Shown one piece after another: positions 2,104-42,175 of a stretch of DNA of 44,030 nt. Each line of letters begins with the position of its first letter. Position 1 is the stretch's first letter. The notes beneath the pieces were generated by a model. The model was given only the letters and a program-made list of their open reading frames with translations. It did no database searches and had not been told where the DNA came from. The DNA comes from Armatimonadota bacterium (GTDB taxonomy: Bacteria; Armatimonadota; UBA5829; DTLH01), in contig JAKPFN010000099.1 in assembly GCA_029551395.1 (NCBI GenBank), forward strand, positions 1-44,030. Direction: 5' to 3'. The position numbers and the translations under genes were made by a program.

Positions 2104-3402
2104 ATGCAGGATTTAAAATCACTGAGGCCCTTGCAGTCGCTCGCGGCCTCTGTGTTTTTCAAGAAAAAGCGCCTACTCCTATCCCTACCGAGGCAATACG
2201 GGGGGAAGACGGAGCTAGGCGTGCGCCTTCTGTACGATATTACGCGGCGCCCCTTCACTTCCTCGTCTCTGTTCCTCGCAAAGGACAAAAAGAGCGGAAA
2301 GAAAGCTACGCGAGAGAAGTTCGAGCGAATATTTGAAAAGTCGCTGTTTGAGATCAACACCGAGAACGTTTACCTAAAGAAATGCCCAACCAGCATCATC
2401 TTCATGGACTCGGTGGACAAAGATCCAGACCGGATTCGCGGAGGTACTTACTCCATGATCCACTGGTCAGAAGTGGCATTCAGTAAGATCGAAAAGGGCG
2501 AGTCTATTATCAGCGTTTTCGACAAGGTGGTTCAGCCTACTTTGTCGCAGACCGATGGCTATGTCCTTTTGGAGTCGACCAATAACGGGCGAAACGGCTG
2601 GTGGGATCTTTGGGAGGCCTATAAAGACTACGGCTTCGCACGTCTAAAGGTCGGGCTATCTGACATGGTCTATTTGGGGCTGATCGAGCCGGAAGAATAC
2701 GACAAGATTAAAAATACTACGCATCCTGATGTTTTCCGCCAAGAGTATGAGTGTGAGTGGGTTAGCTTTCAGGGAAAGACTTACAACGAGTTCGACGAGA
2801 GCCGCCATATACAGGAAATACCCCCTCCTGAGCCCTGGCAGGTCGTCATATCGTCGATTGATTGGGGATACGATCCTTCGGCAACGTGCGTGCTGTTTGC
2901 CTACGTTGTGGAAGGTGTTCTGCATATATTCGATGAGCATTACCAACACCGAGAGCTCGGGCAGATAACTGCAGAGCAGATCGACTACAAAAAGCAGCAA
3001 TGGAACATAAAGCGCCTTGTGGCTACGGCTGACCACGAAGAAGACAGGATCGAGGAATTGACGAAACGGGGGATATCCTGTGGAAAAGCCAAAAAGATCA
3101 ATGTTTTGGGCGCCAGGATAGAGATCAAGGAAGCCTTTTACTTTGATAAGATAGTTATTCACCCACGTTGCCGCTGGCTGATCCGTGATTTAAACGCCGC
3201 AGTGTGGGATCCTAAGAAAGAAGGCGAGATAGATTACACACAATGCACCTGGGGTCATTTCGACGCCGAGGCAGCCTTGCGTTACATGATCAGAGAGCTG
3301 TCGAGCGTTGAGCGGGATAAGCCAGAAGAAAATCCCCATTTTGACTCGTCCTCACAGCAGGCTTTTGAGATGCTACGCTTAAGACAAGGGAGGGCAGAAT
3401 AA
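2104..3402 (+). CDS. terL: Terminase large subunit (packaging ATPase/nuclease)
   Basis: The motor that pumps DNA into the prohead and cuts the concatemer. This 432-residue protein has the full two-domain plan. A Walker A-like motif RQYGGKT lies at residues 30-36. The Walker B region IHWSEVAF (catalytic Glu near 123) uses Ser-Glu in place of the usual Asp-Glu, as some terminases do. The coupling motif is ESTNNGRNGW. The RNase-H-like nuclease domain has acidic residues in IDWGYDPS (Asp253), ATADHEED, and HFDAEAALRYM (Asp387). It starts one base after the previous stop and overlaps the next gene by one base (TAATG). No small subunit is adjacent. Confidence 0.93.
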   Translation: MQDLKSLRPLQSLAASVFFKKKRLLLSLPRQYGGKTELGVRLLYDITRRPFTSSSLFLAKDKKSGKKATREKFERIFEKSLFEINTENVYLKKCPTSIIFMDSVDKDPDRIRGGTYSMIHWSEVAFSKIEKGESIISVFDKVVQPTLSQTDGYVLLESTNNGRNGWWDLWEAYKDYGFARLKVGLSDMVYLGLIEPEEYDKIKNTTHPDVFRQEYECEWVSFQGKTYNEFDESRHIQEIPPPEPWQVVISSIDWGYDPSATCVLFAYVVEGVLHIFDEHYQHRELGQITAEQIDYKKQQWNIKRLVATADHEEDRIEELTKRGISCGKAKKINVLGARIEIKEAFYFDKIVIHPRCRWLIRDLNAAVWDPKKEGEIDYTQCTWGHFDAEAALRYMIRELSSVERDKPEENPHFDSSSQQAFEMLRLRQGRAE

Positions 3403-14923: not shown

Positions 14924-15187
14924 ATGGAAAAAATGCAGAAGCAATCGATCATGATAATTTTGTCTAGCGTTGAGCAGCAACTAGCCGCGTTGCGAACCTT
15001 GCTCATGTTAGGATCAAACCAAGAGACCGCGACTATGCACAAGCCCATCCCTGGCAAGCCGTCCGATTTATGGACGACTGACCAAGAGGATGCGAAAATA
15101 GCCGAGGCCTTAGCTGCGGACAATGAGCAGGATCAACTGCTCCAGGAAATTTTCGAGAAAGCGCAAAATGGCGAACAACGTAAATAA
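14924..15187 (+). CDS. Small acidic helical protein upstream of portal
   Basis: An 87-residue helical protein, preceded by GGAGCCGCCGCA, the same extended leader as other genes here. The first 30 residues are amphipathic (IMIILSSVEQQLAALRTLLM). The C-terminus is Glu/Gln-rich. It overlaps the portal gene by 20 bases. Unknown function, possibly a portal-assembly partner by position. Confidence 0.55.
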   Translation: MEKMQKQSIMIILSSVEQQLAALRTLLMLGSNQETATMHKPIPGKPSDLWTTDQEDAKIAEALAADNEQDQLLQEIFEKAQNGEQRK

Positions 15188-17594
15188 GTCAGCGATCTAC
15201 GCGAAGGACTTGCCCTGGAACACGTTCAAGCCTGAAGAGCTTGGGCCTACCATCATCCAATTCGTTGGTGACCATGAGCCGTTCTTTCGACGCTGGGCTG
15301 AGACCTGGTACGAGAATTTCCAATTCCTGTTTGGTAACCACAGCGTAAAGTGGTCTAGGCGTTACGGCTTCGCTGTTGACTATGATTTCCTCAAGACCAA
15401 CTCCGCTTTCGCTTTGCGGGCGAACACCAACTTAGCTAGAACGATCATCGAATCCTTGGCGAGCTTTATCTACGGCAATATCCCTACCTGGGATGTTGAT
15501 ACCATGGACGAGTCGAGCATCAAGGGTAAACGCTTTAAAAAGATCGTACAGAAAATCCTAGATGCCTACATGCAAAGACTGCTCATGCAAAAGGAGCTCT
15601 CTGTTGCTGCAGTCATTTACGTCATGTTCGGCCAAGTGTGTTGGGAGGTTGATTGGGATCCTATGGTAGGCCAGCTCATGGAGATACCTCGCCAGCGTAA
15701 GGTGCAGGTTCCTCTGTGGTCGACGTACATGGCTCCAAACCAGATGACGGGCGGGCTCATAGAAGTACCGAGCCAGGTCATGACCTCTCAGGGCACACCA
15801 GCCATGGAAGAGCGCTGGGAACCTGTTTTAGATGCCATGGGCAGGCAAATCATTGATAAGATGTTTGCTGGCGATGTTGCAGTCAATGCTCTGACGCCAT
15901 TTGAGTATCGCCGAGAGCTCGGTAAATACTCGATGCACAAGAGCAAGTGGATCCAGCGCTTTAAGCTCATGGATTACGATGAATATCTTGACTATTACAA
16001 GAACATCAACGGCAAGACTCCTGAGTTCGGCAAAATTCGCCCTGTGTATTCTGATCCGACTGTGTACGACCAGGCGATCAGGCACTTCATGCGCATGCAG
16101 TTTACCTCGCCCCCAGCTGCAGACGAGGGATTTAACCGTACGCAGAACGTTTTCAAGTCAAGCTTGTTCAAATACAAGGTTTGGGTTGTCGAGCACTGGG
16201 ACAGGCCGCACCCTGACAAGTGGCCGCTCGGTCGTCGTGTTGTCGTCGCTAACGGCACCTGTACGCACGTCACAGCGCCTCTATACAATACGAACACTAG
16301 AGACGGGTGGCACCCTTTTGTCGAGTCACAGTGGCTTACAGCGTCTCCCAACTCCATTGCGGCTGGGCCAACCAATGACGTGATCCGTAAGAACAAAGAG
16401 CTGAACGTCAAGGATAGCCTTGTCGCAACAGCTGTTCGCCGGAACATGGGTTCTCAGCTACTTGTCAAGATAAATTCTGGAATAGATCCACAGCAATTGA
16501 CTGGTGAGCCAGGGATGACTCACGAAGTCAATGACGTCGATGGAGCTCGCTGGCTGCATGACGACATGCCTATCCCGCCCGTTATGTCCAGGTTGCGGGA
16601 AATGGACAAAGAGGACGTTTATGAGACCTCTGGCTCTGCTGATGCTATCCGTGGGCAGCCTTCTACTGGCGCCAGCTCAGGGTATCAAGAGAAGCAGCGA
16701 GAAGAGCGTGAGGAAAAGCGCCTTGGCACTCCTCGCAGGGAATTCCAGTATGGTGTTGGTAGCGTAGGCTCTAAGATCATTTCATGTCTTAAAGCTAACG
16801 TGATCAAGCTAGACGACAACGTCATGGGCTTTCTCAAGCGCTCTGCAGCTGGGGAATTCAACTCACAGGATATTATCGCCTTTTTGTCAACACCACTGGA
16901 CTACGGCATCGACGTTAAGGTCGAAGAATCCTCCATGGCCGTTAAATCTAAAGCATCGCAGCAAGCTCTCCTCCAGGAGCTCGCTCAGGGGGCTCTCGGG
17001 CCAAGGTTGGCAAACGATGCCAAAGTGCTCGACGAGTATCTGAAATACTTCAACGCCGAGACTTTACGCGATTCCAGCTCGCCACATAGGGACAGGGCAA
17101 ACAGGGAGAACGAGGTGTTCCTCGACTTCTTGCGACTTGGACCGAGCGCTGAGGGGATATCAAACCCTGTCGTTATCTTCGAGGATGACGACATCATCCA
17201 TCTTGCTGAGCATACAGAGATATTCGTCAAGAATTTCGAAGAATTCAAAAACGACGAAGCCTTCATGTTGCGCTTTATGACACACATGGAGCAACACAGG
17301 ATCCAGCAGCAAGAGAAAGAAGGGGCTTTGATGCCAGGTACAGCCACCCAGACGGCTACCATGATGGCACAGGCCCGCACATCAGCGCTTCCTACTCCCC
17401 AGAACATCATGGTGGATAGTAGGAACCGTCAGATGATGCAGCAAAAAGCGCCGCCGCCGCAACAGCAGCCACAAGGGCAAAAAGCGCCACAAGCGCCCCG
17501 TCAGCCCTCGGCACCTGAACAAGGGGCTGGTAATATAAACCCACAGGCACCAAGCCAAAATACGCCATCGGCGAACAAAGGGGGCTTAAGATGA
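15168..17594 (+). CDS. Portal protein
   Basis: The ring through which DNA enters and leaves the head. The 808-residue product has the portal pattern. The N-terminal helices contain WYENFQFLFGNHSVKW. The core includes WEVDWDPMVGQ and HWDRPHPDKWPLGRR. The conserved turn-and-helix region RGQPSTGASSGYQEKQREE is followed by a long helical stem. A Gln/Pro-rich disordered tail (residues of about 745-808) completes it. The open frame reaches upstream to 15123, but I start at 15168 because the residues before it are a read-through of the previous gene. It ends in an ATGA overlap. It is unusually far from terminase. Confidence 0.85.
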   Translation: MANNVNKSAIYAKDLPWNTFKPEELGPTIIQFVGDHEPFFRRWAETWYENFQFLFGNHSVKWSRRYGFAVDYDFLKTNSAFALRANTNLARTIIESLASFIYGNIPTWDVDTMDESSIKGKRFKKIVQKILDAYMQRLLMQKELSVAAVIYVMFGQVCWEVDWDPMVGQLMEIPRQRKVQVPLWSTYMAPNQMTGGLIEVPSQVMTSQGTPAMEERWEPVLDAMGRQIIDKMFAGDVAVNALTPFEYRRELGKYSMHKSKWIQRFKLMDYDEYLDYYKNINGKTPEFGKIRPVYSDPTVYDQAIRHFMRMQFTSPPAADEGFNRTQNVFKSSLFKYKVWVVEHWDRPHPDKWPLGRRVVVANGTCTHVTAPLYNTNTRDGWHPFVESQWLTASPNSIAAGPTNDVIRKNKELNVKDSLVATAVRRNMGSQLLVKINSGIDPQQLTGEPGMTHEVNDVDGARWLHDDMPIPPVMSRLREMDKEDVYETSGSADAIRGQPSTGASSGYQEKQREEREEKRLGTPRREFQYGVGSVGSKIISCLKANVIKLDDNVMGFLKRSAAGEFNSQDIIAFLSTPLDYGIDVKVEESSMAVKSKASQQALLQELAQGALGPRLANDAKVLDEYLKYFNAETLRDSSSPHRDRANRENEVFLDFLRLGPSAEGISNPVVIFEDDDIIHLAEHTEIFVKNFEEFKNDEAFMLRFMTHMEQHRIQQQEKEGALMPGTATQTATMMAQARTSALPTPQNIMVDSRNRQMMQQKAPPPQQQPQGQKAPQAPRQPSAPEQGAGNINPQAPSQNTPSANKGGLR

Positions 17595-17917
17595 TGAAGA
17601 TGAGCCGGTCGCAAATGCTCTCAGTGATCAACAGCATGAGCGACGACAAACTAGCCGAGGCTTTGGACGCTACTGGCGTCGAGACAGGCGTACAAGGCTA
17701 CGACATGGGCGAAGGCGAAGAAGCCGAAGGACTCGAATCCTGGAACGCTCGGGACGTAAGCATCGAGAGCTCGCCGCGTCCTCCCATTATCGACAAAGCT
17801 AAATTTGAAAAGCCGCAACCCCAGATGGGCATGAGGCCCAAGTATGACGTAGGTCAGGATGACCTTTCTGGGCTCCAAGGATTCATGCCTACCGAGGGGA
17901 TGGAAGGGCAATACTAA
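17591..17917 (+). CDS. Acidic accessory protein after portal
   Basis: A 108-residue, Glu/Asp/Gly-rich protein that starts in a four-base ATGA overlap with the portal. No fold is evident beyond an N-terminal helix (SRSQMLSVINSMSDDKLAEAL). The rest looks disordered. Its stop overlaps the next ATG by one base (TAATG). Unknown function. Translational coupling suggests a portal-linked role. Confidence 0.5.
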   Translation: MMKMSRSQMLSVINSMSDDKLAEALDATGVETGVQGYDMGEGEEAEGLESWNARDVSIESSPRPPIIDKAKFEKPQPQMGMRPKYDVGQDDLSGLQGFMPTEGMEGQY

Positions 17918-18144
17918 TGTACCCGCATACCAGACTACTCGTTGACGCCCTGAGCTCGCCGGATGAGATGCCAGTCGAGGAGCCTGCTATGCATGACTCC
18001 CCAGACGATCCCAAGATCCTGCAGCTACGGCTCAAGAGGAAGTACCAGCTCGGCATGATCAAGAAAATGCTTGAGGATGGCGGGTATGGGGAATTAGCTA
18101 AAATGACAACGATTGGGAAAAAATCTTACGATATTGAGGAGTAA
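17917..18144 (+). CDS. Small protein, unknown
   Basis: A 75-residue protein beginning in a TAATG overlap. The N-terminus is acidic and Pro-rich. The centre is a basic helix (ILQLRLKRKYQLGMIKKML). No family was recognised. It belongs to the portal operon. Confidence 0.5.
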   Translation: MYPHTRLLVDALSSPDEMPVEEPAMHDSPDDPKILQLRLKRKYQLGMIKKMLEDGGYGELAKMTTIGKKSYDIEE

Positions 18145-18149
18145 CAGCC

Positions 18150-18608
18150 ATGATAGGTTGGAGCGGAATTACACTGCCCACAGGATCGTCGACCGGGAAC
18201 CTAAAACAGCTTTATCCGACCTGGTGCCCCACTGGGGTAGCCAAGGCATCGGCTACAAACGGCCAGCAGATCCGAGGACCTGTGGAAGGTATCTTGTACA
18301 GTTTGCAAGTCAAGACTGACGGGATCGAAGGCGGTACGATCGAGATTTGGGACATCGACGGAAGCGAAGCAGGGGCTGATGTTTCCTCAGCTGATACCAT
18401 CACCAACGCCCAGCTCGTAGCACTGCAGGCTGCTGGATCGGCGAAACTGATCTATAGCCAGAATTTCGTGGCGTCTCCCACGACTCCATTCGGGACAAGC
18501 CATAGAACATTCCAAAAAGGCCTGGCAGCCCGGTATGTCGGAGACGGCACATGCGAGCTCAACGTGGTCGTTCAAGGTGGATACAGGCTTACTACCAAGG
18601 TGGGATAA
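18150..18608 (+). CDS. Small beta-rich virion protein
   Basis: A 152-residue protein, rich in Gly, Thr and Val with beta-strand pattern (GILYSLQVKTDGIEGGTIEI, ELNVVVQGGYRLTTKVG). AGGAG stands before the ATG. It has no signal peptide, unlike the next two genes. It is probably a small structural protein that links to the fibre genes. Its TAA overlaps the next ATG by one base. Confidence 0.5.
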   Translation: MIGWSGITLPTGSSTGNLKQLYPTWCPTGVAKASATNGQQIRGPVEGILYSLQVKTDGIEGGTIEIWDIDGSEAGADVSSADTITNAQLVALQAAGSAKLIYSQNFVASPTTPFGTSHRTFQKGLAARYVGDGTCELNVVVQGGYRLTTKVG

Positions 18609-20293
18609 TGAAACGTTTAATTGCGCTCTATTTGTTGCTAACGGCGACGATTGCGACGGCAATCCCGCTTGATTATTTCAATACCTATGTGACCAACTAC
18701 CCAAACGAGTCTAAGAAGGGCTCTTGGGTCCAGCTGCTCGCTCGGGGCAGTGGCACAAATCAAATGTACGTCCTCGAAGTGGACCCCACCACGGGCGCGT
18801 TGCCTGTGAGCGGTTCCTTTAGCTTTTCGGTGGACAAGAACTATGGTGCGGTTGGCGCCAACACGCTACGCACGGCTTCGCAGATCGGTAACGCCACAGG
18901 GGCAGCTGATTTCGACGCAGGCAACTACTCGGCGCAGACATTGCGCGTTGTGGTAGCCAGCGACCAGCCAGCTATACCTGTGACATCAGCACCTAACGTC
19001 ACAGACTATGGAGCCACTACCAATGCCCAACGAGTCGCATCGCAAATTGGTAATTCGACTGGCGCCGCCGCTTTCGGAACTGGAACGAGGTCAGCCCAAA
19101 CGCTCAGGGTTACTGTGGCGACTGATGACGTGGTTCCGGCTAGTCAGTCCGGTACATGGAACATCAACGACGTTACTGGAACGATTTCTTTGCCGACTGG
19201 CGCGTCGACGGCTGCGAAGCAAGATACGGGTAATACGTCCTTAGCTTCTATCGACGGCAAAATCCCTGCCCTTGGTCAGACCACTATGTCCGGTAGCCTT
19301 CCGGTAGCTATCGCCAGCGACCAGACAGCCGTCCCAGCGTCGCAATCAGGTACCTGGACCGTTCAACCTGGCAACACGGCTAATACCACCCCATGGCTTG
19401 CTACGATTAACCAGGGCGGCAATAGCGCCACTGTAACGGCATCTAACGCCTTAAAGGTTGACGGGTCAGCGGTAACTCAGCCAGTATCAGCTGCATCATT
19501 GCCTTTACCTACAGGCGCAGCCACCGAGGCCACGCTGTCAACCTTAAGCGGGAAAATAGCCAATGACTATGGAGTTAGTTCCGGAGCCGTTAGAACTGCC
19601 AGCCAGCTTGGAAATGCAACCGGATCCGTCGATTACGGTTCAGGAGCTGCTGGTGCTCAAACGTTACGAACCGTTCTTTCTACACGTCAAGAGTCTGTTA
19701 CCACCCCACTTGCGGCACAGCTATCTAATGGTAGTAGCGCAGTGGATTACGATTCTGGCGCCGCAGGATCTGCAACTCTTAGAACCGTGCTTAGTACACG
19801 ACAGGAAAGCGTCGCGACTCCACTTGCCGCGCAACTTAGCAACGGAACGACAGCGATTGACTACGGCTCAGGATCAGCTGGCGCGGCAACTATTAGGGTT
19901 GTGCCTAGCACAAGATCTGAGTCAGCAGCCACGCCGCTCTCCGTTAGAATCAGTGACGGCACCAACTTCTCAACCCCCGCCCAAGCAGGAAGGAGCTACG
20001 CTGACTCGGCTCGACTCGATTATTCTTCAACCTCGGTAACGACTGGGGCATGGGTTCAGCTGATCGCGTCGACTGCAGCCGTGATCAACCAAATTTACTT
20101 GTTCGATAGCTCAGGACAGACTCTTGAGCTTGGCACAGGGGCAGCTGCCTCTGAGACAAGAAAGGCTATCATTCCTCCTGGTGGCATCGATGGACCTTTG
20201 AATTTGGCCATCCCAGCAGGTACTCGCGTTTCGATCCGTGCTGTATCGGCAACGGCTGACGTCGGGGAAATTGACTTTACGGGGCTTCAATAA
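18608..20293 (+). CDS. Repeat-rich fibre-like protein with signal peptide
   Basis: A 561-residue protein. I start it at 18608 in a TAATG overlap, giving MKRLIALYLLLTATIATA, a textbook Sec signal peptide. The frame also runs 19 codons upstream. The body is made of beta-rich repeats of the kind found in phage tail and appendage proteins (ASQIGN..GAA, PASQSGTW). Residues of about 340-453 hold three 38-residue tandem repeats with the core TLRTVLSTRQESV. A virion fibre should not need export, so either the N-terminus is a membrane anchor or the protein is delivered to the envelope. Confidence 0.6.
   Translation: MKRLIALYLLLTATIATAIPLDYFNTYVTNYPNESKKGSWVQLLARGSGTNQMYVLEVDPTTGALPVSGSFSFSVDKNYGAVGANTLRTASQIGNATGAADFDAGNYSAQTLRVVVASDQPAIPVTSAPNVTDYGATTNAQRVASQIGNSTGAAAFGTGTRSAQTLRVTVATDDVVPASQSGTWNINDVTGTISLPTGASTAAKQDTGNTSLASIDGKIPALGQTTMSGSLPVAIASDQTAVPASQSGTWTVQPGNTANTTPWLATINQGGNSATVTASNALKVDGSAVTQPVSAASLPLPTGAATEATLSTLSGKIANDYGVSSGAVRTASQLGNATGSVDYGSGAAGAQTLRTVLSTRQESVTTPLAAQLSNGSSAVDYDSGAAGSATLRTVLSTRQESVATPLAAQLSNGTTAIDYGSGSAGAATIRVVPSTRSESAATPLSVRISDGTNFSTPAQAGRSYADSARLDYSSTSVTTGAWVQLIASTAAVINQIYLFDSSGQTLELGTGAAASETRKAIIPPGGIDGPLNLAIPAGTRVSIRAVSATADVGEIDFTGLQ
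19622..19963 (+). repeat. Three tandem 38-residue protein repeats
   Basis: Units with period 114 bases. The two best-matched 24-codon cores start at 19661 and 19775, with the third at 19889. The first two cores differ at one residue out of 24, yet 19 of 24 codons differ. The third unit is more diverged in protein. Boundaries are approximate because the units grade into weaker upstream repeats. Confidence 0.75.
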
Positions 20294-22281
20294 TGAAAAA
20301 TACATGCCGCGCTCTCTTAGTATTCATTTTCACCTATTCCCAGGCCTTCGCAGCTGGTCCAGTTATCTGGAACGGCACACGCTCGAAAGCTCTGACTCAA
20401 AAGGGATTCGTTTTATCTGACAGCTCTGTTGTCGATAACGACGGCCAGCTCAACTATGTGAAAAACGGCCATGGTGAGGTATCGGCTACGGGTTGGACAA
20501 CTTACGATGATGGAGCAGCTACTCCTGTCGACTGCACGGGCGGAACGGTATCTGAGACTATCACCAAGAGCTCGACGACTCCACTGGTCGGGGCTGGATC
20601 TTTGCTACTGACCAAGGACGCTGCAAACAGGCAGGGCGAGGGGGCTGCTTATAACTTCACTATCGACAACGCCTATAAGTCAACTCCACTGCAAATCAAG
20701 GTTACAGCACTTGGGAGCGCAAACTACGCGGCATCGGATATTGGGATCTATGTCTATGACGTAACCAACGCGCAGCTTCTAACACCTGCGGCTGTAAACA
20801 TCGCGGCTGGCACTTTCACGCTCAATAGCTTTTTTGTAGCGACAACTAGCACGAGTTACAGGCTTTGTGTTCACACGCAGTCGACGAATGCGAGCGCTTA
20901 CACGCTACAACTCGACAGCGTGAGCGTTGGTCCATACTCCGTTGGTGTCGGATTTGCTGGAACGGATTGGATCCAAAATACCGGGTTTACTGTTAACGGT
21001 TTCAACACTGTAACTAATACCAGGTTCTATACCAGAAGAGTAGGAGACTCACTCCAAGTTATAGGGTACTTCCAAGCTGCATCTGGTGCCGCATCCACAG
21101 CTTCAGTATCTCTACCTTCTGGTTTGACAATTGATAATACCAAGGTAGTCCCATCAGCAGCTAACACATATACCTTGGGACCAGTATTTAGGTTGAAATC
21201 TGGATCTCCCGGAGCGAGTGCTATTGGTACTGTTCTGTTTTTAGATGGATCAACAACAGACAGATTTTTCTTCTCTGACAACGGAGCTTTAGCAAGCACT
21301 GAGTATCTTAAAACCAACGGAAGCAACATTGATGCTGGTTCTGATGCTTGGTCATTTGGCCCAATCAATATCCCAATCGCTAACTGGAATTCTGGGACAC
21401 AACTAGCTGACCGAGCGGTCGAGGAATATGCGAGTAATTCATCTACAACGGTAACGGACGATACCACAAGCTTTGCATATGGTCCTTTTGGATCTTTTAT
21501 CCCGAACGGGTCAGCTGCTGGCCCATTCAAAAAAACCGTTAGATTCCAGTATCCTGTCCAGACAACGGACAGCCTTATTGTTGAATTGCAAGTAGGTGGA
21601 TCAAACCAATGGGTGCCCGTTTCAACTTCAACTCAATCAACAGGAATCGGGCCTTTTCTTTACCTTGGCGGTGCAAGCGCAGGTATTGGGGTTAACAACA
21701 ATACTGGTTCCACAACCGATATAAATGTTTTTTTTGGAAGATATGCCAACTATTCCGGGGCTGGTTCATTTGGGTCAGGCGGGGATAACTGGTCAACATT
21801 TTCGGCATCAAAATGGAGATTAAGGAAAATCAGCGGCGGGGCGCTGGTAGGTTATCCTCAGTCCACTGATAATATACTCGGCTCGACAACAGGGCTTGCA
21901 CCAGCGGACGGATATATCGGTCAACAAATCAGTAGCTCTCAAAGTGGTATTGGCGGGATAAATACCGGAGTTTACACGACGATTCAAAGTATCGTTCTCA
22001 CCCCAGGTATTTGGGATATTAATGCCACAACAAGGATACCCTCACAAACCGTGACAAACGTTGATTGGGGGATCGCGACCACAACCAATTCAAACACTGG
22101 TTGGGTTTTTGGCGATAACGCCAACTCAATTCTAACAATAGCCGGGCAAGATACAGGGGGAACTATTGTTGGCGTTCGCGTTAACGTTCCGTCTACTACT
22201 ACCTATTATTTAACCATGAGGCCATTTGGCGGAAACATCACTGCGGTGGCATGTAGGCTTTCGGCCGTGAGGGTCCACTAA
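20293..22281 (+). CDS. Fibre-like/receptor-binding protein with signal peptide
   Basis: A 662-residue protein starting in a TAATG overlap. The N-terminus (CRALLVFIFTYSQAFAAGPV) is a Sec signal peptide with a likely cut after AFA. After it come carbohydrate-binding-like beta domains: one ends YTLQLDSVSVGP, and another is of the type seen in phage fibres (FYTRRVGDSLQVIGYFQA, VSLPSGLTIDNTKV). It is coupled to a similar exported protein before and a lipoprotein after. It may be a surface adhesin, a receptor-masking protein or a fibre that matures through the envelope. The signal peptide is the odd feature. Confidence 0.6.
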   Translation: MKNTCRALLVFIFTYSQAFAAGPVIWNGTRSKALTQKGFVLSDSSVVDNDGQLNYVKNGHGEVSATGWTTYDDGAATPVDCTGGTVSETITKSSTTPLVGAGSLLLTKDAANRQGEGAAYNFTIDNAYKSTPLQIKVTALGSANYAASDIGIYVYDVTNAQLLTPAAVNIAAGTFTLNSFFVATTSTSYRLCVHTQSTNASAYTLQLDSVSVGPYSVGVGFAGTDWIQNTGFTVNGFNTVTNTRFYTRRVGDSLQVIGYFQAASGAASTASVSLPSGLTIDNTKVVPSAANTYTLGPVFRLKSGSPGASAIGTVLFLDGSTTDRFFFSDNGALASTEYLKTNGSNIDAGSDAWSFGPINIPIANWNSGTQLADRAVEEYASNSSTTVTDDTTSFAYGPFGSFIPNGSAAGPFKKTVRFQYPVQTTDSLIVELQVGGSNQWVPVSTSTQSTGIGPFLYLGGASAGIGVNNNTGSTTDINVFFGRYANYSGAGSFGSGGDNWSTFSASKWRLRKISGGALVGYPQSTDNILGSTTGLAPADGYIGQQISSSQSGIGGINTGVYTTIQSIVLTPGIWDINATTRIPSQTVTNVDWGIATTTNSNTGWVFGDNANSILTIAGQDTGGTIVGVRVNVPSTTTYYLTMRPFGGNITAVACRLSAVRVH

Positions 22282-23099
22282 TGACGCAAGCCATCATCAT
22301 AGCTTTGCTCCTTTTGTCGGGCTGCTCCTTTAAGGAGCCAAAACCTTCCACGGACAGCCGTAGGGGGGAGCTGCAGGCTATGTATGACAGTAGGCTCGCT
22401 GAGTACAACGCATCGACCTCGGTTGACCATGGTTGGCCATCCACGAAGGATTGCGACGGAGTCCTGTGGGCAGGCTTGGCTTGTTACGCTGGGGCTGAGG
22501 TTGATATTGGCCTAGCTGAGTATGAGCCAGGTAGGATCGAGCGCCGTCCAGCGCCTAGCTGTTACCCTGATGAGTCCGGATCGACCATTAGCCGAGATCA
22601 GCTAACTGGTTACATAGCTTGCAGATGGCGTAAAAACGACACAGAGGCTCTTAAGCGCCTTGCTGACTATGGAGAGGTGCATAGCTGGATCATGGGCGAG
22701 CCAGGGTGGAAGCTAGATCTCGTTTTTATGGGTCAAAACCTCCAAGCTATCCTCGGCAAGATGATAGACCGCTACAAAGACCTTCAAATCACCTTCGCGC
22801 CTTTAAATCGCGATTATGAGCGCCATATCCAGACGATTCAGATCAACCTGCTGGCTGACCTGGCAAAGCTGGACTTTCTGCAGCTTGACAGAGTGAGCCA
22901 AAACGTCAAATATGACAATCAAGACGCACTATTTCAGGCCACCAAGGGGAAATTCTCGGGGGATATGCAGGAAGCCGTCACCCTGCTCTTATCTGCTGAC
23001 TATAAGTGCCCGTCTTATGTTCGCGGGGCAGATAAGTATTGCGCCGTCCATTGGCTGTTAGCGACAAGAGTCGCTTTGGATTCACTCAAGGAGGAATAG
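22281..23099 (+). CDS. Phage lipoprotein, conserved-type
   Basis: A 272-residue protein starting in a TAATG overlap. The N-terminus MTQAIIIALLLLSGC is a lipoprotein signal with lipobox LSGC. The mature part has paired Cys blocks (KDCDGVLWAGLACYAGAEVDI, split by the writer into KDCDGVLW and CYAGAEVDI) and the stretch DYGEVHSWIMGEP. I recall similar Cys-containing proteins of unknown role in other phages, but cannot confirm. It should be fixed to a membrane facing the periplasm or outside. Possible roles are superinfection exclusion or host-envelope change, which is inference. Confidence 0.6.
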   Translation: MTQAIIIALLLLSGCSFKEPKPSTDSRRGELQAMYDSRLAEYNASTSVDHGWPSTKDCDGVLWAGLACYAGAEVDIGLAEYEPGRIERRPAPSCYPDESGSTISRDQLTGYIACRWRKNDTEALKRLADYGEVHSWIMGEPGWKLDLVFMGQNLQAILGKMIDRYKDLQITFAPLNRDYERHIQTIQINLLADLAKLDFLQLDRVSQNVKYDNQDALFQATKGKFSGDMQEAVTLLLSADYKCPSYVRGADKYCAVHWLLATRVALDSLKEE

Positions 23100-24605: not shown

Positions 24606-24797
24606 ATGCTTACATCTAAAGCAGCGGCAAAGACCGAAAAGATCGACGAGAACCGTACTAGGTATTATTACCTAAACAGGGACGATTCTAAAGAGCTGTG
24701 GGACGTCCCAGGCTTTTTCGCCGTAGTAGTCAAAGAGGAGCCAGGGCTGTATGTTATTGATTTGTATAAGCAACCCTTTTTATGGTGGACAATATGA
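24606..24797 (+). CDS. Small protein upstream of papain-like peptidase
   Basis: A 63-residue protein I do not recognise. It is Lys/Glu-rich at the start, then has strands with aromatic residues (TRYYYLNRDDS, PGFFAVVV). No SD is visible before the ATG. The stop sits in an ATGA overlap with the peptidase start, so it may be translated together with it. It could be a chaperone or inhibitor of that peptidase, which is guesswork. Confidence 0.4.
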   Translation: MLTSKAAAKTEKIDENRTRYYYLNRDDSKELWDVPGFFAVVVKEEPGLYVIDLYKQPFLWWTI

Positions 24798-25642
24798 AAA
24801 AGCTTCTCCTTTTACTGTTTGCGCTTTTGTCCTGCAAAGCCGTCGCGGACGATATCGCCCCGAGCGGACCTACCGGCCTAGTTTTTCCAGACAATTGGCA
24901 GTCGATGGCGTCCTGGGACAACACGCAGCCGACCGCAACCCTTCCAGCGAGGTTTAACTGGAACGACTTCATGCGACTGCAGCCGATCCGCAATCAAGGC
25001 TCGTGCGGTTCCTGCTGGGCGTTCTCGGTCACGGCTGTAACAGAGTCGCTACACAGGATCCTGTTTCCCATGCTTTTTCCTATCGTCGACCTAGCCGAGC
25101 AGACACTCGTTAGCACCTGCGAGCGTGGCGGGGATTGTGGCGGTGGATTCTTTGACGCCTTTGACTACATCAAGAACTCAGGGCTGCCAAAAGAAGCTGA
25201 TGATCCGTACAGAGCTCGCAACTCCTCATGCCAATCAGGACTCACACCATTCGCCAAGATTACCGGCTGGTCATATGTAGGCGACGAAAACAGAGGCCCT
25301 ACGATCGAGCAGATCAAGCAAGCAGTCTATGACCATGGGCCTGTTAGCATCGACATCAACGGGAGCCTGTCCAATACTGCCTCGGTCATAAAGTCCTGTG
25401 GCTCAACCATGACAAACCATATGGTCAACGTGGAGGGTTGGGTCGATGATCCAGACTATGCAGACTACGGCGGGGGATATTGGATTATCCGCAACTCCTG
25501 GGGGAAAGACTGGGGAGACCACGGCTATTTTAAGATCGTGTACAAATCTCGTGGTGGCTCTAAATGCAATGGCGCAGGGAGCACAGCAGCCTACGCCATC
25601 ATGAACAACGTACAGAATATCCGCGAATACCTGGGCCTATAG
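24794..25642 (+). CDS. Secreted papain-like cysteine peptidase (C1A)
   Basis: A 282-residue endopeptidase of the papain family. All active-site parts are present: QGSCGSCWAFS (oxyanion Gln68, nucleophile Cys74), LAEQTLVSTC, DCGGG, NHMVNVEGW (His209), and IIRNSWGKDWGDHGYF (Asn234). The first 18 residues (KKLLLLLFALLSCKAVA) form a signal peptide. A Cys in LLSC could even make it a lipoprotein. Only about 30 residues precede the mature domain, so the usual long inhibitory propeptide is missing. I start at 24794 because of the ATGA overlap. A frame start at 24782 adds four residues. C1A peptidases are rare in phages, so a cargo or host-interaction role is likely. Confidence 0.9.
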   Translation: MKKLLLLLFALLSCKAVADDIAPSGPTGLVFPDNWQSMASWDNTQPTATLPARFNWNDFMRLQPIRNQGSCGSCWAFSVTAVTESLHRILFPMLFPIVDLAEQTLVSTCERGGDCGGGFFDAFDYIKNSGLPKEADDPYRARNSSCQSGLTPFAKITGWSYVGDENRGPTIEQIKQAVYDHGPVSIDINGSLSNTASVIKSCGSTMTNHMVNVEGWVDDPDYADYGGGYWIIRNSWGKDWGDHGYFKIVYKSRGGSKCNGAGSTAAYAIMNNVQNIREYLGL

Positions 25643-31695: not shown

Positions 31696-34155
31696 CTAAG
31701 TCATAAGCCCAAGAGCCCTGACAGCGTCATAGACTTCTTGCAGCATTGTTTGCTCGGTTGCACCATACGTCCCACCAGCAGTTTGAGCTCCGGATGAAAC
31801 TGGTTGTGCTACTGGTGTAGTTCCATAAAATCCGATTTGATCATCGAACCTCGCGTCACCAGTTACTTGCAAAGCAAGACCTGCCGCAGCCGTATCATCA
31901 GATACCGCAGTCCCACCGATACGAAGTGCGCCAGCTAACCAGTTTTGAGAAGCGCCATCGATATAGAGGCCCCACGATACCGTCCCAGGGTCACCGAACG
32001 GCAAAGCCATCTCATACCCGTAAAGGCGATTAACCGTGGTCACGCCGTTAGGGATTGCAAGGGCACGGCAAAGAGCGACAGTGTCGGCTGTACCTCCACC
32101 AGCGCCAGCGTCAAGAGACAAAGCGAACACTGCGCCAGCGACACGGTCAATAGTCGATCCCGTACCCATGTTAAGAACAGCCGGAAGGCCAAGCGCCGTG
32201 ATGCCAAGGAATGCGGTTGTTACTGCCGCATTATCTCCAATGCTAATCAGAGCCGCAGTGTTAAGGCCTAAGGTGTCAGCGTTGGCGATTGTGACGTTTG
32301 CCGCAACGGTCGGTTGGCAAATGAGCGAGTTCGCTGAACCAGGGTTCCCGCCTCCATCAACGACAGTGTATGGTGCGAATGACGTTAGTGAGCCGATTGA
32401 TAAAGCGCCAGTAAATGACAGCGCCCCATCAATTTGCACGTCACCTTGGAAGTATGCCGCACGTTTTGTTCCAGGGTTAATACCGCCAGACATTGGCGTC
32501 TCGGCATACGTTACTTGTGGGTTGCTCGCCGTCCCAGTGATCGGGAAATTAAGGTTTGCCGCTATTGTGAAGTTAGCGTTGAGCGCCGCTACGACTTGCG
32601 TTGCTGTTGAAACACCTGACTCAATTGAAACAACGACATGCTGCCCACCGGTTAGCGTTGCGACTTCATTCCCTGCCGTTGTTGTGTTCGTGTATTCAAT
32701 CGTAATGCTGTTACCGAAAGTCCCGGCTGTCTGTGATTCGTAGGTAATATCCTGAACAGCTAGGCTTGCTTTTACGCCAGCGTAAAGCGTCACGTTGTTT
32801 GAATACACGGACAACAAGTCACAGTTTGCGGTCGCGTTTGCGATGTTCGGATTAATCGACAAACCTGTGAAATATGTCGTGTCCGTGATGGTCGGGTTAA
32901 CGGCAATGCCGTTCATCCCGTTAGTCATCGTCCCGAAGTTGCCGTTAATGGCGATAATGTTGGCGTTGGAATTGCCAAGCATAGTCCCGACTGTCGGGTT
33001 GATAGAAATGGCGGTGAAATTGCAGTTGTTTGCAATTGTCCCGATTTGTGGGTTGAGCGAAACAGACTGGTAGTTCTGCATTGCCCCGCCGTTGGAATTG
33101 AAGGCGTCTATGAAGGCATAGACGCCTTTACCAGCATCGAGGGTTACTGACGCATCAAAACCAGGCGCGAAATAGTAACCGTTGACGTTCTGAGTAAAGT
33201 TCACGCCTGCCTGCACGTTGGCGTATGCTAGTGCGTAGTTCAGGCCCCTAACATTGATAGGATCGGTTCCGTTTCCGAGACCAAAGAAAGTGGAAATACC
33301 TTCAAGACCACCAACGTCTCCGGTGTTCTGAGCGAAAATGTTGTTAACGATACCAGTCGCGGCTCGTCCACCAGTACCAAAGGCAAATCCTGAATTGTTT
33401 TGGTCAAGGGCAATGCCCAATTGCAGACCGTTGACCGAGTCACTAGGAGACGCTTGTAATGGCTGAACATCAAGGTTAAACGTGTTCGCCGTGAGGTTGA
33501 CCGCCAGGTTGTTTGGCGCAGTGGTATTAGGCATGTAAAGGCCTAAGCTGTTGGGGTCGACCTGAAACGAACCAAGCGTGGCAATGTCTCCAGAACCGTT
33601 AAAGAGCGCAACTCTGTATGCCGTACCCGTTGGCGGGTAGTTCGCGGCACTAATGTTCCCTGTAATATTGACGTCAGTATTGACCTGCAACTCGGCATTG
33701 GTGAGCCGCATGACTTCCTGGTTGTTACAGCTCCAATACTGAGCGCCGTCGCCGTCAGATCCCCAGCCCGTATCGTTGCCAGACTCTCCAAAGCCGAACA
33801 CAGGGTTAGGAGAGACGCCTTCTGGGGCGATAAGAGGCCACTTAACCGCGCCGCTTAATGTGTTGGCTACGTCGTCATATGTCCAAGCAAGCGTTGTGCT
33901 GTCGATAATGAGCGCCGCGACTCTGTCGTCGACACGCTCGTCCGTGTAATATTTTCGAGTGCCTTCCGAGATATTGGTCGTGGTTAGAACGACTGAGCCA
34001 GTCTGTCCGTTGACTGACGAGACCGACGTACCGCTCACAGGACCCCAATCAGCGTCCCCGTCGGCGTTTGAGAGCTTGGTCAATACCTCGCCGGTCGTTC
34101 CACCAGGAGGGACGCCGCCGCCAGAAAGAGGGAGCTTAATATATCCGTCAGCCAT
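31696..34155 (-). CDS. Tail fibre protein
   Basis: An 819-residue fibre. The N-terminus (GVPPGGTTGEVLTKLSNADG) is a common fibre attachment motif, and it continues with VSSVNGQTGSVVL. The shaft is long, Asn/Gly/Thr-rich and repetitive (AINGNFGTMTNGMNG, SINPNIANATANC). The C-terminus (IGFYGTTPVAQPV ... MLQEVYDAVRALGLMT) matches a frequent receptor-binding or trimerising end. No signal peptide is present, which contrasts with the two fibre-like proteins on the plus strand. AGAGGT lies six bases before the ATG. It follows two small regulators. Confidence 0.85.
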   Translation of the reverse strand: MADGYIKLPLSGGGVPPGGTTGEVLTKLSNADGDADWGPVSGTSVSSVNGQTGSVVLTTTNISEGTRKYYTDERVDDRVAALIIDSTTLAWTYDDVANTLSGAVKWPLIAPEGVSPNPVFGFGESGNDTGWGSDGDGAQYWSCNNQEVMRLTNAELQVNTDVNITGNISAANYPPTGTAYRVALFNGSGDIATLGSFQVDPNSLGLYMPNTTAPNNLAVNLTANTFNLDVQPLQASPSDSVNGLQLGIALDQNNSGFAFGTGGRAATGIVNNIFAQNTGDVGGLEGISTFFGLGNGTDPINVRGLNYALAYANVQAGVNFTQNVNGYYFAPGFDASVTLDAGKGVYAFIDAFNSNGGAMQNYQSVSLNPQIGTIANNCNFTAISINPTVGTMLGNSNANIIAINGNFGTMTNGMNGIAVNPTITDTTYFTGLSINPNIANATANCDLLSVYSNNVTLYAGVKASLAVQDITYESQTAGTFGNSITIEYTNTTTAGNEVATLTGGQHVVVSIESGVSTATQVVAALNANFTIAANLNFPITGTASNPQVTYAETPMSGGINPGTKRAAYFQGDVQIDGALSFTGALSIGSLTSFAPYTVVDGGGNPGSANSLICQPTVAANVTIANADTLGLNTAALISIGDNAAVTTAFLGITALGLPAVLNMGTGSTIDRVAGAVFALSLDAGAGGGTADTVALCRALAIPNGVTTVNRLYGYEMALPFGDPGTVSWGLYIDGASQNWLAGALRIGGTAVSDDTAAAGLALQVTGDARFDDQIGFYGTTPVAQPVSSGAQTAGGTYGATEQTMLQEVYDAVRALGLMT

Positions 34156-39037: not shown

Positions 39038-40066
39038 ATGAGAATTATCGTGCTATTCCTGGCCATTGTGGCGGCTTGCTTAAAATGCACCCCCACCGGT
39101 GACCATAACCAGCAACTAGAAGAGTCATGGTCACAGACAACAAAGCGAGATACTTCCATGTGGGTCAACCAAGGGGACCTGAGACTATTCGACGTTGTCA
39201 TGGTGGATTCAGGCCCAGACCGTCTAATGTCAAATCTGATAGGCGGGACCGTTCCCCAGGCCTCTGAGTACCCTGCTACCTTCGCCTCGCGTCAGAGTGG
39301 CTCTGGCTGCACGGCAACCCTAATCGCTGAGGACGTCCTCCAATTGGCTGCCCATTGCGTGGGTAACGGCCGCACTGCTCAAATAACAAGCAACGGCCAG
39401 TCATACACAGGCACCTGTACCCATGCCCCTGGCTACCAGGGAGATGCCACGGCTGACTGGGCTCTGTGCAAAATGTCAACAGTCGTCGATAGAACGTGGT
39501 ACGAAAAAGTCCTCCAGGATCCCACCAAGATCGCTGTCGGTGGCAAAGTTACCCTCGCAGGAGCAGGTTGCACCCAGCCTGGCGGTAATGATGGCGCATT
39601 CGGCACGCTAAGAGTCGGGCAAGCCACCATCACTCAAGTACCCACTTCAGACAATGACACCGTCACAAAGGGCGGCGCGGCACTTTGCTTCGGTGATTCT
39701 GGCGGGTCCGCCTTCTACGAAGAAGTCGGCGGGCAAAGGTGGGTCATGGGCGTCAACTCTCGGGGAGATATCCAGTCTACCAGCTATTTAGCTTCCGTGT
39801 TCACAGCTAGTGCGAAAAATTTCTACAAAGCTTGGGCACAGACCAACAATGCTAAAATTTGTGGCATCGATCCGGCTGCTGTGAAATGCCAAGGGAGCAC
39901 AGTCGACCCCACACCTCCATTGCCACCACAATGCAAGGTCGCTCTGGACCTATTCACAAAATGTCTTTACGACATCCCACGGCTTGCTATCGCGCAGCCA
40001 GCCCAATGCCGGAAAGCATATGCTGACCTTTTCGCTTGCGAAGAAGCAGCCGAGCTCGCACAATAG
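39038..40066 (+). CDS. Secreted trypsin-fold serine peptidase, lipoprotein
   Basis: A 342-residue peptidase of family S1. The catalytic triad is intact: AAHCV (His106), DWALCKM (Asp140) and GDSGGSAF (Ser221). The mature domain begins near LIGGTVPQASEYP, as in activated chymotrypsin-like enzymes. The N-terminus (IIVLFLAIVAACLKC) is a lipoprotein signal with lipobox VAAC. The residue six before Ser221, where trypsin has Asp, is Ala, so Lys/Arg specificity is not expected. A Cys-containing helical tail (residues of about 295-342) follows a TPPLPP linker. It has its own promoter and terminator, typical of a cargo gene. Confidence 0.9.
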   Translation: MRIIVLFLAIVAACLKCTPTGDHNQQLEESWSQTTKRDTSMWVNQGDLRLFDVVMVDSGPDRLMSNLIGGTVPQASEYPATFASRQSGSGCTATLIAEDVLQLAAHCVGNGRTAQITSNGQSYTGTCTHAPGYQGDATADWALCKMSTVVDRTWYEKVLQDPTKIAVGGKVTLAGAGCTQPGGNDGAFGTLRVGQATITQVPTSDNDTVTKGGAALCFGDSGGSAFYEEVGGQRWVMGVNSRGDIQSTSYLASVFTASAKNFYKAWAQTNNAKICGIDPAAVKCQGSTVDPTPPLPPQCKVALDLFTKCLYDIPRLAIAQPAQCRKAYADLFACEEAAELAQ

Positions 40067-40891: not shown

Positions 40892-42175
40892 ATGTCAGGA
40901 GCTACCTTTAGCGATGTTGACAGCTACGGCCTTCTAAAGGAGCTGTACGCTGACGATGTTCAATTCCAAGAGCACATTCTCTCGTCATTCTATAACTTTC
41001 TACGGAAAGCCTCCAAAGGGGAAGTAGAATTTGACGGCAAGTATTGGAACCAAGGCGTTGTGTTCCAACTCAACGAAAGCTACGGAGCTAAAAACGACTC
41101 CGAGCGTTTGCCTGATTCTGACTTCCAAAAAGGCGTTTTCGCGAAATATCGCCCGAAACTCATGTACTCAAGCATCGAGATGACGACCTTCGCGGCAACC
41201 CGTGGACACAAAAACGGGCGCCCCAACGGCAAGTACCTCGAAGACACGATCAAGGGCACCTTGCTCTCTTTCATGTCCAACCTCGACTCCGATGCACTCG
41301 GCAACGGTCGCGGTTACCGCGCAACGATCTTGACTGCAACTCCTGCAGCAACCTCTTTCACCGTTGACTACTCGACGCGCCTTCGTCCTGGCATGAAGCT
41401 GGACTGGTACGACTCGACCTTGGCAACCAAACGCGGCTCGATCAAGATCGCGCTTCGTGGCGTTGACCGCATGAACAAAACGGTTTACATCGACACGACT
41501 TTTGGCACAGGCGCAGTCCCGGCTGGCGCAGTGGCAGACGACGTCCTCGTTGTTTACGGCGCTCTCGCAGCTGGCGAGCCTTCTGACGGTCGTCATATGG
41601 GCGGTTACGCTCGTATCGTCGACAACACGCTTTCTTTGGGCTCTTTGGCCAGCTCGACCTACGCAGCTTGGGCAGCAACCAACATCAACGCAGGTTTGGC
41701 TAACCCCAACCAAGAGATCCTTCAGCAACACTGGGATGCTATGGGCATCATCTCTGGCGTAGATCCTAACCGCATGGCTTTCAACCAAGCCTGGAAACGT
41801 GGATACCTCAACGGTTTCCTCAACCAACGCCGGTTTACGTCTAACAACTTCGACACTGGCGCATCCAGCCTCAGCTGGTCACCTGTGAAAATGGGCAAAG
41901 ACGACAGCGGCAAAAAAGTCTCTGGCATCGAGATGCTCGAAGACAAAAACATGGACCCCACCGCAGTCTATATCTGGAACCATGACGCGCTGTGCATCGC
42001 CACGGACTACGGCGATCAACCGCACTTGGCAGACGAAGACGGCTCTGAATTCCGCTTCCGTCGTAACTACGACTCCATGAACGGATTCTTCCGCTTCTGG
42101 GCAAACGTTGTTGTTAAACAACGAAACGCGGTCGGACAGATCTACAACTTCACACCTGCATCAGGCGTAATCTAA
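40892..42175 (+). CDS. Major capsid protein
   Basis: A 427-residue protein with the pattern of HK97-fold coat proteins: an N-terminal helix (YGLLKELYADDVQFQEHILS), GKYWNQGVVFQLNESYG with the spine-like NLDSDALGNGRG region after, a beta-rich middle, and C-terminal strands (GFFRFWANVVVKQRNAVG). Codon use is more uniform than in neighbours (frequent GGC, GCA and TTC), as expected for an abundant protein. AGAGG precedes the ATG and an intrinsic hairpin follows the stop. No protease is adjacent. The family is inferred, not aligned. Confidence 0.75.
   Translation: MSGATFSDVDSYGLLKELYADDVQFQEHILSSFYNFLRKASKGEVEFDGKYWNQGVVFQLNESYGAKNDSERLPDSDFQKGVFAKYRPKLMYSSIEMTTFAATRGHKNGRPNGKYLEDTIKGTLLSFMSNLDSDALGNGRGYRATILTATPAATSFTVDYSTRLRPGMKLDWYDSTLATKRGSIKIALRGVDRMNKTVYIDTTFGTGAVPAGAVADDVLVVYGALAAGEPSDGRHMGGYARIVDNTLSLGSLASSTYAAWAATNINAGLANPNQEILQQHWDAMGIISGVDPNRMAFNQAWKRGYLNGFLNQRRFTSNNFDTGASSLSWSPVKMGKDDSGKKVSGIEMLEDKNMDPTAVYIWNHDALCIATDYGDQPHLADEDGSEFRFRRNYDSMNGFFRFWANVVVKQRNAVGQIYNFTPASGVI

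What the first reader, a model, noticed from the sequence alone, without database searches (positions are those of the whole stretch)
18608..23099. Fibre-like virion proteins and a lipoprotein carrying export signals, in one coupled run
Two large proteins that look like tail fibres or adhesins (18608-20293, 20293-22281) both begin with clear Sec signal peptides. They are joined by TAATG overlaps to each other and to a lipoprotein (22281-23099). Normal fibres assemble in the cytoplasm and lack such signals, as the third fibre (31696-34155) does. The run may display phage-encoded proteins on the host surface, for example for exclusion of other phages, host adhesion or a fibre added outside the cytoplasm.
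Basis: partly seen in the sequence, partly recalled or inferred. Interest (0 to 1): 0.72.

Follow-up and report, generated by a model that had tools for sequence, protein, structure and literature searches.

The report
Phage fibre proteins tagged for export
A phage genome encodes fibre-like proteins and a lipoprotein that carry export signals, and related export-tagged sets turn up in many other uncultured phages, suggesting that these phages send part of their fibre machinery out of the host cell instead of, or before, building it into the particle.

Summary
18608-20293 and 20293-22281 begin with Sec signal peptides, 22281-23099 with a lipobox; all three joints are TAATG; the third fibre (31696-34155) has no signal. 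It is more than chance: (1) all six lineages found of the 22281 lipoprotein keep a lipobox and lie downstream of fibre-type genes, the order of T5 pb5-Llp. (2) 20293 is the distal domain of ordinary phage fibres with anchor and shaft missing and a signal peptide in their place. (3) A full phage genome, ctLwi270, has four adjacent signal-peptide genes right behind its portal gene; 28 of 37 5'-complete relatives of the first (24 distinct) can start with one too. (4) Signal-bearing fibres have four times the cysteine of signal-less ones, in even numbers in 24 of 26 against 13 of 35: a mark of disulphide folding outside the cytoplasm, though the window's own two fibres (0 and 3 Cys) do not show it. 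The phage also encodes a signal-bearing papain and trypsin. I read it as an exported late module acting on the host surface, most likely receptor masking or stripping. Export is well supported, function inferred, host unproven. Fitting to virions outside the cytoplasm is not excluded: 18608 keeps both ends of signal-less relatives.

The parts
15123..17594 (+). portal protein, head of the coupled run
   Evidence: phrog_156 E 1.5e-5; 47% to the portal of ctKpZ937
17591..18144 (+). two small genes (17591-17917, 17917-18144) coupling the portal to the run
   Evidence: ORFs and overlaps
18150..18608 (+). 152-aa presumed virion protein upstream of the run, no signal
   Evidence: 40% to ctKpZ937 11149-11616; weak Phage_cement_2, E 0.027, below cut-off
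18608..20293 (+). 561-aa repeat-rich fibre-like protein with Sec signal peptide
   Evidence: translation; N- and C-terminal homology to signal-less genes at the same place in L003 and L082; no Cys in the mature part
18608..18661 (+). signal peptide MKRLIALYLLLTATIATA
   Evidence: score 12.5; 6 of 5000 shuffles reach it
20293..22281 (+). 662-aa receptor-binding-type fibre domain with Sec signal peptide in place of virion anchor and shaft
   Evidence: homology to distal fibre domains starts at aa 51-54 here but at aa 225-631 in five signal-less homologues, of eight homologues compared
20293..20352 (+). signal peptide MKNTCRALLVFIFTYSQAFA
   Evidence: score 13.0; 29 of 5000 shuffles reach it
22281..23099 (+). 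272-aa lipoprotein, predicted helical with an (alpha/alpha)-toroid-like shape
   Evidence: lipobox here and in five other lineages; AlphaFold2 pLDDT 85, pTM 0.83; VIA-align Z up to 13.8
22281..22325 (+). lipoprotein signal peptide (14 aa) and lipid-bearing Cys15
   Evidence: sequence; 9 of 5000 shuffles reach the score
24794..25642 (+). papain-family cysteine protease with signal peptide (or lipobox LLS|C)
   Evidence: PF00112 E 7.1e-43; QGSCGSCW, NHMV and RNSWG present
39038..40066 (+). trypsin-family serine protease with signal peptide (or lipobox VAA|C), 12 Cys in the mature part
   Evidence: PF00089 E 2.4e-13; AAHC, DWALC and GDSGG present
31696..34155 (-). ordinary fibre-like protein without signal (contrast)
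   Evidence: no credible similarity to either exported protein
2104..3402 (+). terminase large subunit (shows that this is a phage)
   Evidence: phrog_2 E 9.6e-24; 51% to ctKpZ937
40892..42175 (+). major head protein (shows that this is a phage)
   Evidence: phrog_14242 E 2.7e-33

Best explanation
The run is an exported late module of a tailed phage. Translated with the portal and head genes, its products are sent out by Sec. The lipoprotein is lipid-anchored. The 20293 protein is a free receptor-binding domain: its virion anchor and shaft are gone and a signal peptide stands there instead. The 18608 protein is an exported form of a presumed virion-surface protein. Outside the cytoplasm they act on the cell's own envelope; most likely they mask, jam or strip the receptors that this phage's fibres would bind, so that further phages and the progeny do not adsorb to the dying cell or its debris. 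The signal-bearing papain and trypsin would help by cutting surface proteins. Shown by sequence: signals, lipobox conservation, fibre-lipoprotein order, anchor loss, recurrence, cysteine signature in related exported fibres. Inferred: late timing, site of action, receptor masking, role of the proteases.
For: Signals score above shuffles. Lipobox in six of six lipoprotein lineages, each downstream of a fibre-type gene: overlapping in the window and L245, 9 bases in L070, 59 in L046, about 460 in L239, one gene between in L074. T5 Llp is adjacent to and downstream of the receptor-binding protein pb5, and added purified pb5 itself blocks infection (passages of PMC9586334). 20293 aligns from aa 51-54 to fibres where the same domain starts at aa 225, 277, 342, 404 and 631. 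Other fibres with signals: ct8d5349, ctLwi270 with four in a row behind the portal, L060 with two in a row, L227, and 28 of 37 5'-complete members of the ctLwi270 family. Signal genes sit together: 27 adjacent pairs against a permutation mean of 10.6, maximum 21 of 2000. Phage hallmark genes in these loci: portal in L190, L194, L216, L219; terminase in L192, L208, L217; head protease in L199. Cys 1.42 against 0.31 per 100 aa; even counts 24 of 26 against 13 of 35. Hydrolases with signals: GH28/pectate-lyase tailspike in ctLwi270, apiosidase in L191, papain in L225, papain and trypsin in the window. ctLwi270 keeps a separate 'tail collar' gene and the window a signal-less fibre, so the exported proteins need not be the only fibres.
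Against: Most fibre homologues have no signal: 59 of 87 distinct complete ones, and nearly all relatives of 18608. The nearest whole relatives, ctKpZ937 and L082, lack it at the same place; the scorer gave the L082 gene 12680-13180 a weak 10.7, which I discount because the stretch aligns with mature sequence in the window. The window's two exported fibres do not show the cysteine signature themselves (0 and 3). 18608 keeps both ends of a signal-less, presumably virion, protein, and both signal-bearing proteins of L060 match PHROGs called virion structural protein. No similarity links the exported 20293 to the phage's own fibre 31696, so masking of the same receptor is not supported by sequence. 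The proteases are not in the same run. No localisation or virion data exist, and the host is unproven.
Confidence: 0.45

Rival explanations
1. The exported fibres are virion parts finished outside the cytoplasm: they fold and form disulphides in the periplasm and are fitted to particles at or after lysis.
For: Genes lie behind the portal in the window, ctLwi270 and L190. 18608 shares N- and C-terminal segments with signal-less 154- and 166-aa proteins at the same place in L003 and L082. The two signal-bearing proteins of L060 match PHROGs labelled virion structural protein. Disulphide-type cysteine signature in the exported families.
Against: 20293 has lost the usual anchor and shaft; other, signal-less fibres remain in the window and ctLwi270; from the literature as I recall it, no tailed phage is known to fit fibres outside the cytoplasm.
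Confidence: 0.2
2. Lysogenic-conversion adhesins: phage fibres turned into host surface adhesins, as with PblB or in the manner of Bdellovibrio MAT fibres.
For: Signal peptide plus fibre is the plan of MAT proteins (PMC10769870); PblB is a phage tail protein with a predicted signal that mediates adhesion (PMC4508584); lectin-like LamG in ctLwi270.
Against: Genes are coupled to the portal gene, so expression should be late and lytic; I noted no integrase among the families matched, but not every gene was tested; no similarity to solved MAT tips by sequence (inconclusive).
Confidence: 0.15
3. An egress module: exported hydrolases, lectins and adhesins loosen the host's protein coat or surrounding matrix before or at lysis.
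For: Signal-bearing papain and trypsin in the window, papain in L225, GH28-type tailspike in ctLwi270, apiosidase in L191; neighbouring lysis-type genes in L245 and L227 (assigned by eye, not by a family search); toroid-like lipoprotein model resembling glycan-active folds.
Against: The window's proteases are apart from the run; the two fibres have no enzyme domain match; fold similarity of a helical model at Z about 10-14 may be a common arrangement only.
Confidence: 0.15
4. The hydrophobic N-termini are incidental or the starts wrong, and the proteins stay in the cytoplasm.
For: Signals are absent in most homologues; one mechanical start (18551) buries the first signal.
Against: Three consecutive genes, no usable alternative start for the two fibres, low shuffle rates, and recurrence with the cysteine signature in relatives.
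Confidence: 0.05

Closest known systems
Phage T5 pb5 and Llp (receptor-binding protein and superinfection-exclusion lipoprotein)
   Same: Lipoprotein gene adjacent to and downstream of the receptor-binding gene (PMC9586334, passages read); lipobox; six lineages here.
   Different: 272 aa and helical instead of a small lipoprotein; no PDB chain matched the family profile (an Llp structure, 8A60, is cited in the paper); here the fibre itself is also exported, which pb5 is not (recalled).
Bdellovibrio MAT (mosaic adhesive trimer) proteins
   Same: Phage-fibre-like proteins with signal peptides, displayed outside the cell (PMC10769870, passages and section 10).
   Different: Encoded by the bacterium, not by a phage late operon; the ~130-aa domain after the signal could not be compared; host here not shown to be a predator.
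PblB of streptococcal prophages
   Same: Phage tail protein reported with a putative signal peptide and acting as a host surface adhesin (PMC4508584, passages read).
   Different: Gram-positive host; a single protein; for the S. mitis PblB the paper reports display after phage-induced permeabilisation and release.
Lambda Lom and Bor (roles recalled)
   Same: Phage-encoded exported envelope proteins; Lom is encoded directly behind the tail gene J.
   Different: Not fibre-like.

Membership tests
T5 Llp / Cor superinfection-exclusion lipoproteins | lipoprotein signal with lipobox | tested here: met
   six of six lineages
T5 Llp / Cor superinfection-exclusion lipoproteins | gene next to the receptor-binding protein gene (holds for T5) | tested here: met
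   downstream of a fibre-type gene in six of six lineages; one gene between in L074, about 460 bases in L239; in L046 the fibre is judged from its N-terminus
T5 Llp / Cor superinfection-exclusion lipoproteins | small size | tested here: not met
   272 aa; the paper's Llp comparison counts 61 residues
T5 Llp / Cor superinfection-exclusion lipoproteins | sequence or profile similarity to Llp | tested here: inconclusive
   profile A5 against PDB chains: 0 matches up to E 1; a short divergent protein can be missed
T5 Llp / Cor superinfection-exclusion lipoproteins | binds the outer-membrane receptor and blocks adsorption | not testable with these tools
   needs expression and adsorption assays
Conventional virion tail fibre | N-terminal virion anchor and shaft ahead of the receptor domain | tested here: not met
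   20293: domain starts at aa 51-54 against 225-631 in five signal-less relatives
Conventional virion tail fibre | homology to receptor domains of phage fibres | tested here: met
   20293 to L015 36% over 656 columns, E 4e-76
Bdellovibrio MAT proteins | signal peptide followed by a fibre | tested here: met
Bdellovibrio MAT proteins | conserved ~130-aa beta-rich domain after the signal, S74 or known tip | tested here: inconclusive
   no PDB match by sequence or profile; the domain itself is not available as a reference
Papain family C1 (24794-25642) | catalytic motifs and curated score | tested here: met
   PF00112 147.7 bits, cut-off 20.7; motifs

The most novel reading that the evidence does not exclude
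Many uncultured tailed phages build part of their fibre set in a second compartment: fibres, lectins and depolymerases encoded behind the portal gene are exported by Sec, folded with disulphides outside the cytoplasm, and attached to particles or to the cell surface only when the envelope opens.
Probability: 0.2. Interest if true: 0.85.

Novelty: new variant of a known kind. Interest (0 to 1): 0.62.

Why it matters
Tailed-phage fibres are taken to be made and attached in the cytoplasm. Runs of fibre-like, lectin-like and hydrolase genes with export signals, recurring behind phage head genes and carrying a disulphide signature in relatives, mean that either phages have an unrecognised late secretome aimed at their own host's surface, or some virion parts are finished outside the cytoplasm. 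Both can be tested directly, and both affect how receptor-binding proteins are annotated: a 'tail fibre' in a metagenome may not be on the particle.

Tried and rejected
Bdellovibrio-host idea: dropped, because the MAG's RpoC is nearest to Armatimonadota (best 73%). That this MAG is the phage's host is itself not supported: tetranucleotide correlation with eight of its contigs is 0.556, against 0.70-0.93 for each of those contigs with the rest and 0.64 for lambda, although GC agrees with the RpoC locus (0.508 and 0.509).

Searches that found nothing or little: 20293 in viral contigs, none confirmed; 20293 in 61 genomes, only the window's own; portal profile in viral contigs, 1 locus, and in genome contigs, none; trypsin and lipoprotein in the phage collection, none; P0005 in 291 genomes of the phylum, 2 with short matches; PADLOC and NCBIfam, none; 16S by pattern, none.

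AlphaFold2 of 20293 was poor (pLDDT 51, pTM 0.37) and was not searched. The lipoprotein model gave no PDB Foldseek match below E 0.001, one viral match at 3.6e-8 to an uncharacterised phage protein, and VIA-align Z up to 13.8 to cyclases and glycan-active toroid folds; no enzyme function is claimed.

In the first fibre scan (77 loci) signals were seen in L012, L029, L033, L060 and L072; L019 is hydrophobic without a basic residue; L008 and its near-duplicate L009 were flagged by the looser rule and discounted, and a few other flags fell on internal or non-typical starts (L021, L038, L066, L079). In one search several ORFs were picked in the wrong frame, so one search was used instead; it accepts any start in the first 100 codons, which favours finding a signal. 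The cysteine counts leave out duplicate N-termini, fragments without a 5' end and, for parity, proteins without Cys or without a stop; 22 of the 26 signal-bearing ones come from one family and are not independent. The fibre sample was gathered partly with signal-bearing queries and is not a survey.

Literature: brought up no paper that describes runs of signal-bearing phage fibres; only open-access papers are held, and of most hits only the listing was seen.
Full report
What is there. The window is one whole contig (C154, 44030 bases) of a metagenome-assembled genome of 165 contigs. It is a tailed phage: terminase (2104-3402), portal (15123-17594) and major head protein (40892-42175) match phage families. 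Its nearest named relative is ctKpZ937 from Manatee Spring (terminase 51%, portal 47%). The finding's three genes follow the portal through small genes, mostly with overlapping stops and starts.

The signals are real features. 18608 begins MKRLIALYLLLTATIATA|IPLD, 20293 begins MKNTCRALLVFIFTYSQAFA|AGPV, 22281 begins MTQAIIIALLLLSG|C. SignalP was not available, so I wrote a scorer for a charged start, a hydrophobic core and a cleavage motif. Shuffles of the own N-terminus reach the score in 6, 29 and 9 of 5000; pooled shuffles pass in 117 of 10800; T7 gives 0 of 48 called genes, and lambda gives 4 of 74 (lom, Rz, RexB and the lipobox gene at the place of bor). No start with a ribosome site lies downstream of the signal in the first 70 codons of either fibre. 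The third fibre (31696-34155) has no signal and no credible similarity to the two exported ones.

What 20293 is. Its residues 51-661 align with the distal part of an ordinary phage fibre, L015, at 36% over 656 columns (E 4e-76), and parts of it with L005, L008, L054, L059, L070, L074 and ct8d5349. In L015, L005, L008, L054 and L074 the matching part starts at residue 277, 404, 342, 631 and 225, behind an anchor and shaft. Here it starts at residue 51-54, so the anchor and shaft are gone and a 20-residue signal stands in their place. The ct8d5349 homologue keeps a shaft and also begins with a signal, MFNKILIAIVFIITCLNAFS, behind a good ribosome site; its deposited start lies upstream of it.

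What 18608 is. Two relatives, ctKpZ937 and L082, carry at the same place, behind homologues of 18150-18608, short genes (154 and 166 aa) that share its N-terminal segment (YVLEVDPTTGALPV; E 4e-6 to L082, 0.025 to L003), and L003 shares its C-terminal segment (E 4e-7). They have no signal by eye; the scorer gave the L082 gene a weak 10.7, which I discount because the scored stretch aligns with mature sequence in the window. So a signal stands in front of what is probably a virion-surface protein in relatives. This is the main evidence for the rival that the protein still reaches virions.

What 22281 is. It belongs to a phage lipoprotein family found in six lineages (window, L239, the L046 group, L245, L070, L074). 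All six have a lipobox, and each lies downstream of a fibre-type gene, overlapping it in the window and L245. In T5 the exclusion lipoprotein Llp is adjacent to and downstream of the receptor-binding protein pb5, and added pb5 itself blocks infection (passages of PMC9586334). The family here is larger, and no PDB chain matches its profile. The model is helical and well predicted (pLDDT 85). Its shape resembles alpha/alpha toroids, which include glycan-active enzymes (Z up to 13.8), but for helical models such values can be a common arrangement.

It recurs. ctLwi270, a full phage genome with a distantly related portal, has four adjacent signal-bearing genes straight behind its portal gene: 846, 195, 263 and 532 aa; the third has a LamG-type lectin domain, the fourth a GH28/pectate-lyase domain and a tail-spike match. 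A scan for the first found 37 loci in IMG/VR. Of 43 matching reading frames among all loci held, 37 are 5'-complete and 28 of these can start with a signal: 24 distinct N-termini against 7 distinct without. In the 37 loci signal genes sit together: 27 adjacent pairs against a permutation mean of 10.6 and a maximum of 21 in 2000. Phage hallmark genes were found in eight of the 37 held stretches (L190, L192, L194, L199, L208, L216, L217, L219), plus a weak head-protein match in L201; the rest were not resolved. Further signal-bearing fibres lie in L012, L029, L033, L060, L072 and, by eye, L227.

A mark of folding outside the cytoplasm. Pooling the fibre families, 28 distinct signal-bearing proteins have 1.42 Cys per 100 residues and 59 signal-less ones 0.31 (p 9e-11). 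Among those with Cys and a stop, the mature count is even in 24 of 26 against 13 of 35. Among all genes of at least 120 aa called in 42 loci, signal genes are even in 50 of 61 and others in 109 of 237. This is expected if the exported proteins form disulphides. Relatedness weakens the p-values, since 22 of the 26 are one family. The window's two fibres have 0 and 3 Cys and do not show it; the lipoprotein (6 besides the lipid Cys), the papain (7, one of them catalytic) and the trypsin (12) fit it.

More exported proteins in the same phage. 24794-25642 is a papain-family protease and 39038-40066 a trypsin-family protease, both with hydrophobic leaders that could be cleaved signals or lipoboxes and both with the catalytic motifs present. 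A papain with a signal-like leader, seen by eye and cut by the end of the held stretch, lies near an 18608-like gene in another phage contig, L225. An apiosidase-like signal gene lies in L191.

Mechanism. I think that the run is an exported late module acting on the host's own surface. Shown: signals, order, conservation, anchor loss and recurrence. Inferred: late timing, from coupling to the portal gene. Inferred: the free receptor domain and the lipoprotein mask or jam the receptors, while the proteases strip surface proteins. The strongest result against it is that 18608 keeps both ends of a signal-less relative, which would suit a virion part fitted after export; the two L060 proteins, which match PHROGs called virion structural protein, point the same way. 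Many fibre homologues also have no signal, so export is an option that phages gain or lose, perhaps with the host.

Host. The MAG is Armatimonadota by RpoC, but composition does not tie the contig to it, so the host is open.

Novelty. Exported phage proteins (T5 Llp, lambda Lom), a phage tail protein with a predicted signal (PblB, PMC4508584) and bacterial exported fibres (MAT, PMC10769870) are known. Runs of signal-bearing fibres, lectins and hydrolases inside phage head-tail regions were not described in any paper that my ten searches of the open library brought up, as far as listings and passages showed. I file it as a new variant of a known kind.

Noticed in passing
24794-25642: Signal-bearing papain-family protease with all catalytic motifs; the only PF00112 match in the MAG.
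   Followed up: partly
39038-40066: Signal-bearing, cysteine-rich trypsin-family protease next to the head-protein end of the genome; no relative in the phage collection.
   Followed up: partly
30679-30966, minus strand: M15-type peptidase (PF08291, E 1.8e-18), probably the endolysin, far from the exported run.
   Followed up: no
29221-30114, minus strand: RecT-family recombinase (PF03837).
   Followed up: no
L083:14090-19590 (ctLwi270, MW202554): Four adjacent signal-bearing genes behind the portal; the record's product names do not mention signals.
   Followed up: yes
L214:9796-12504: 902-aa signal-bearing protein with DUF4215 repeats in a run of signal-bearing genes.
   Followed up: no
window as a whole: The phage contig is binned in an Armatimonadota MAG, but its tetranucleotide profile does not match it; possibly misbinned.
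   Followed up: partly
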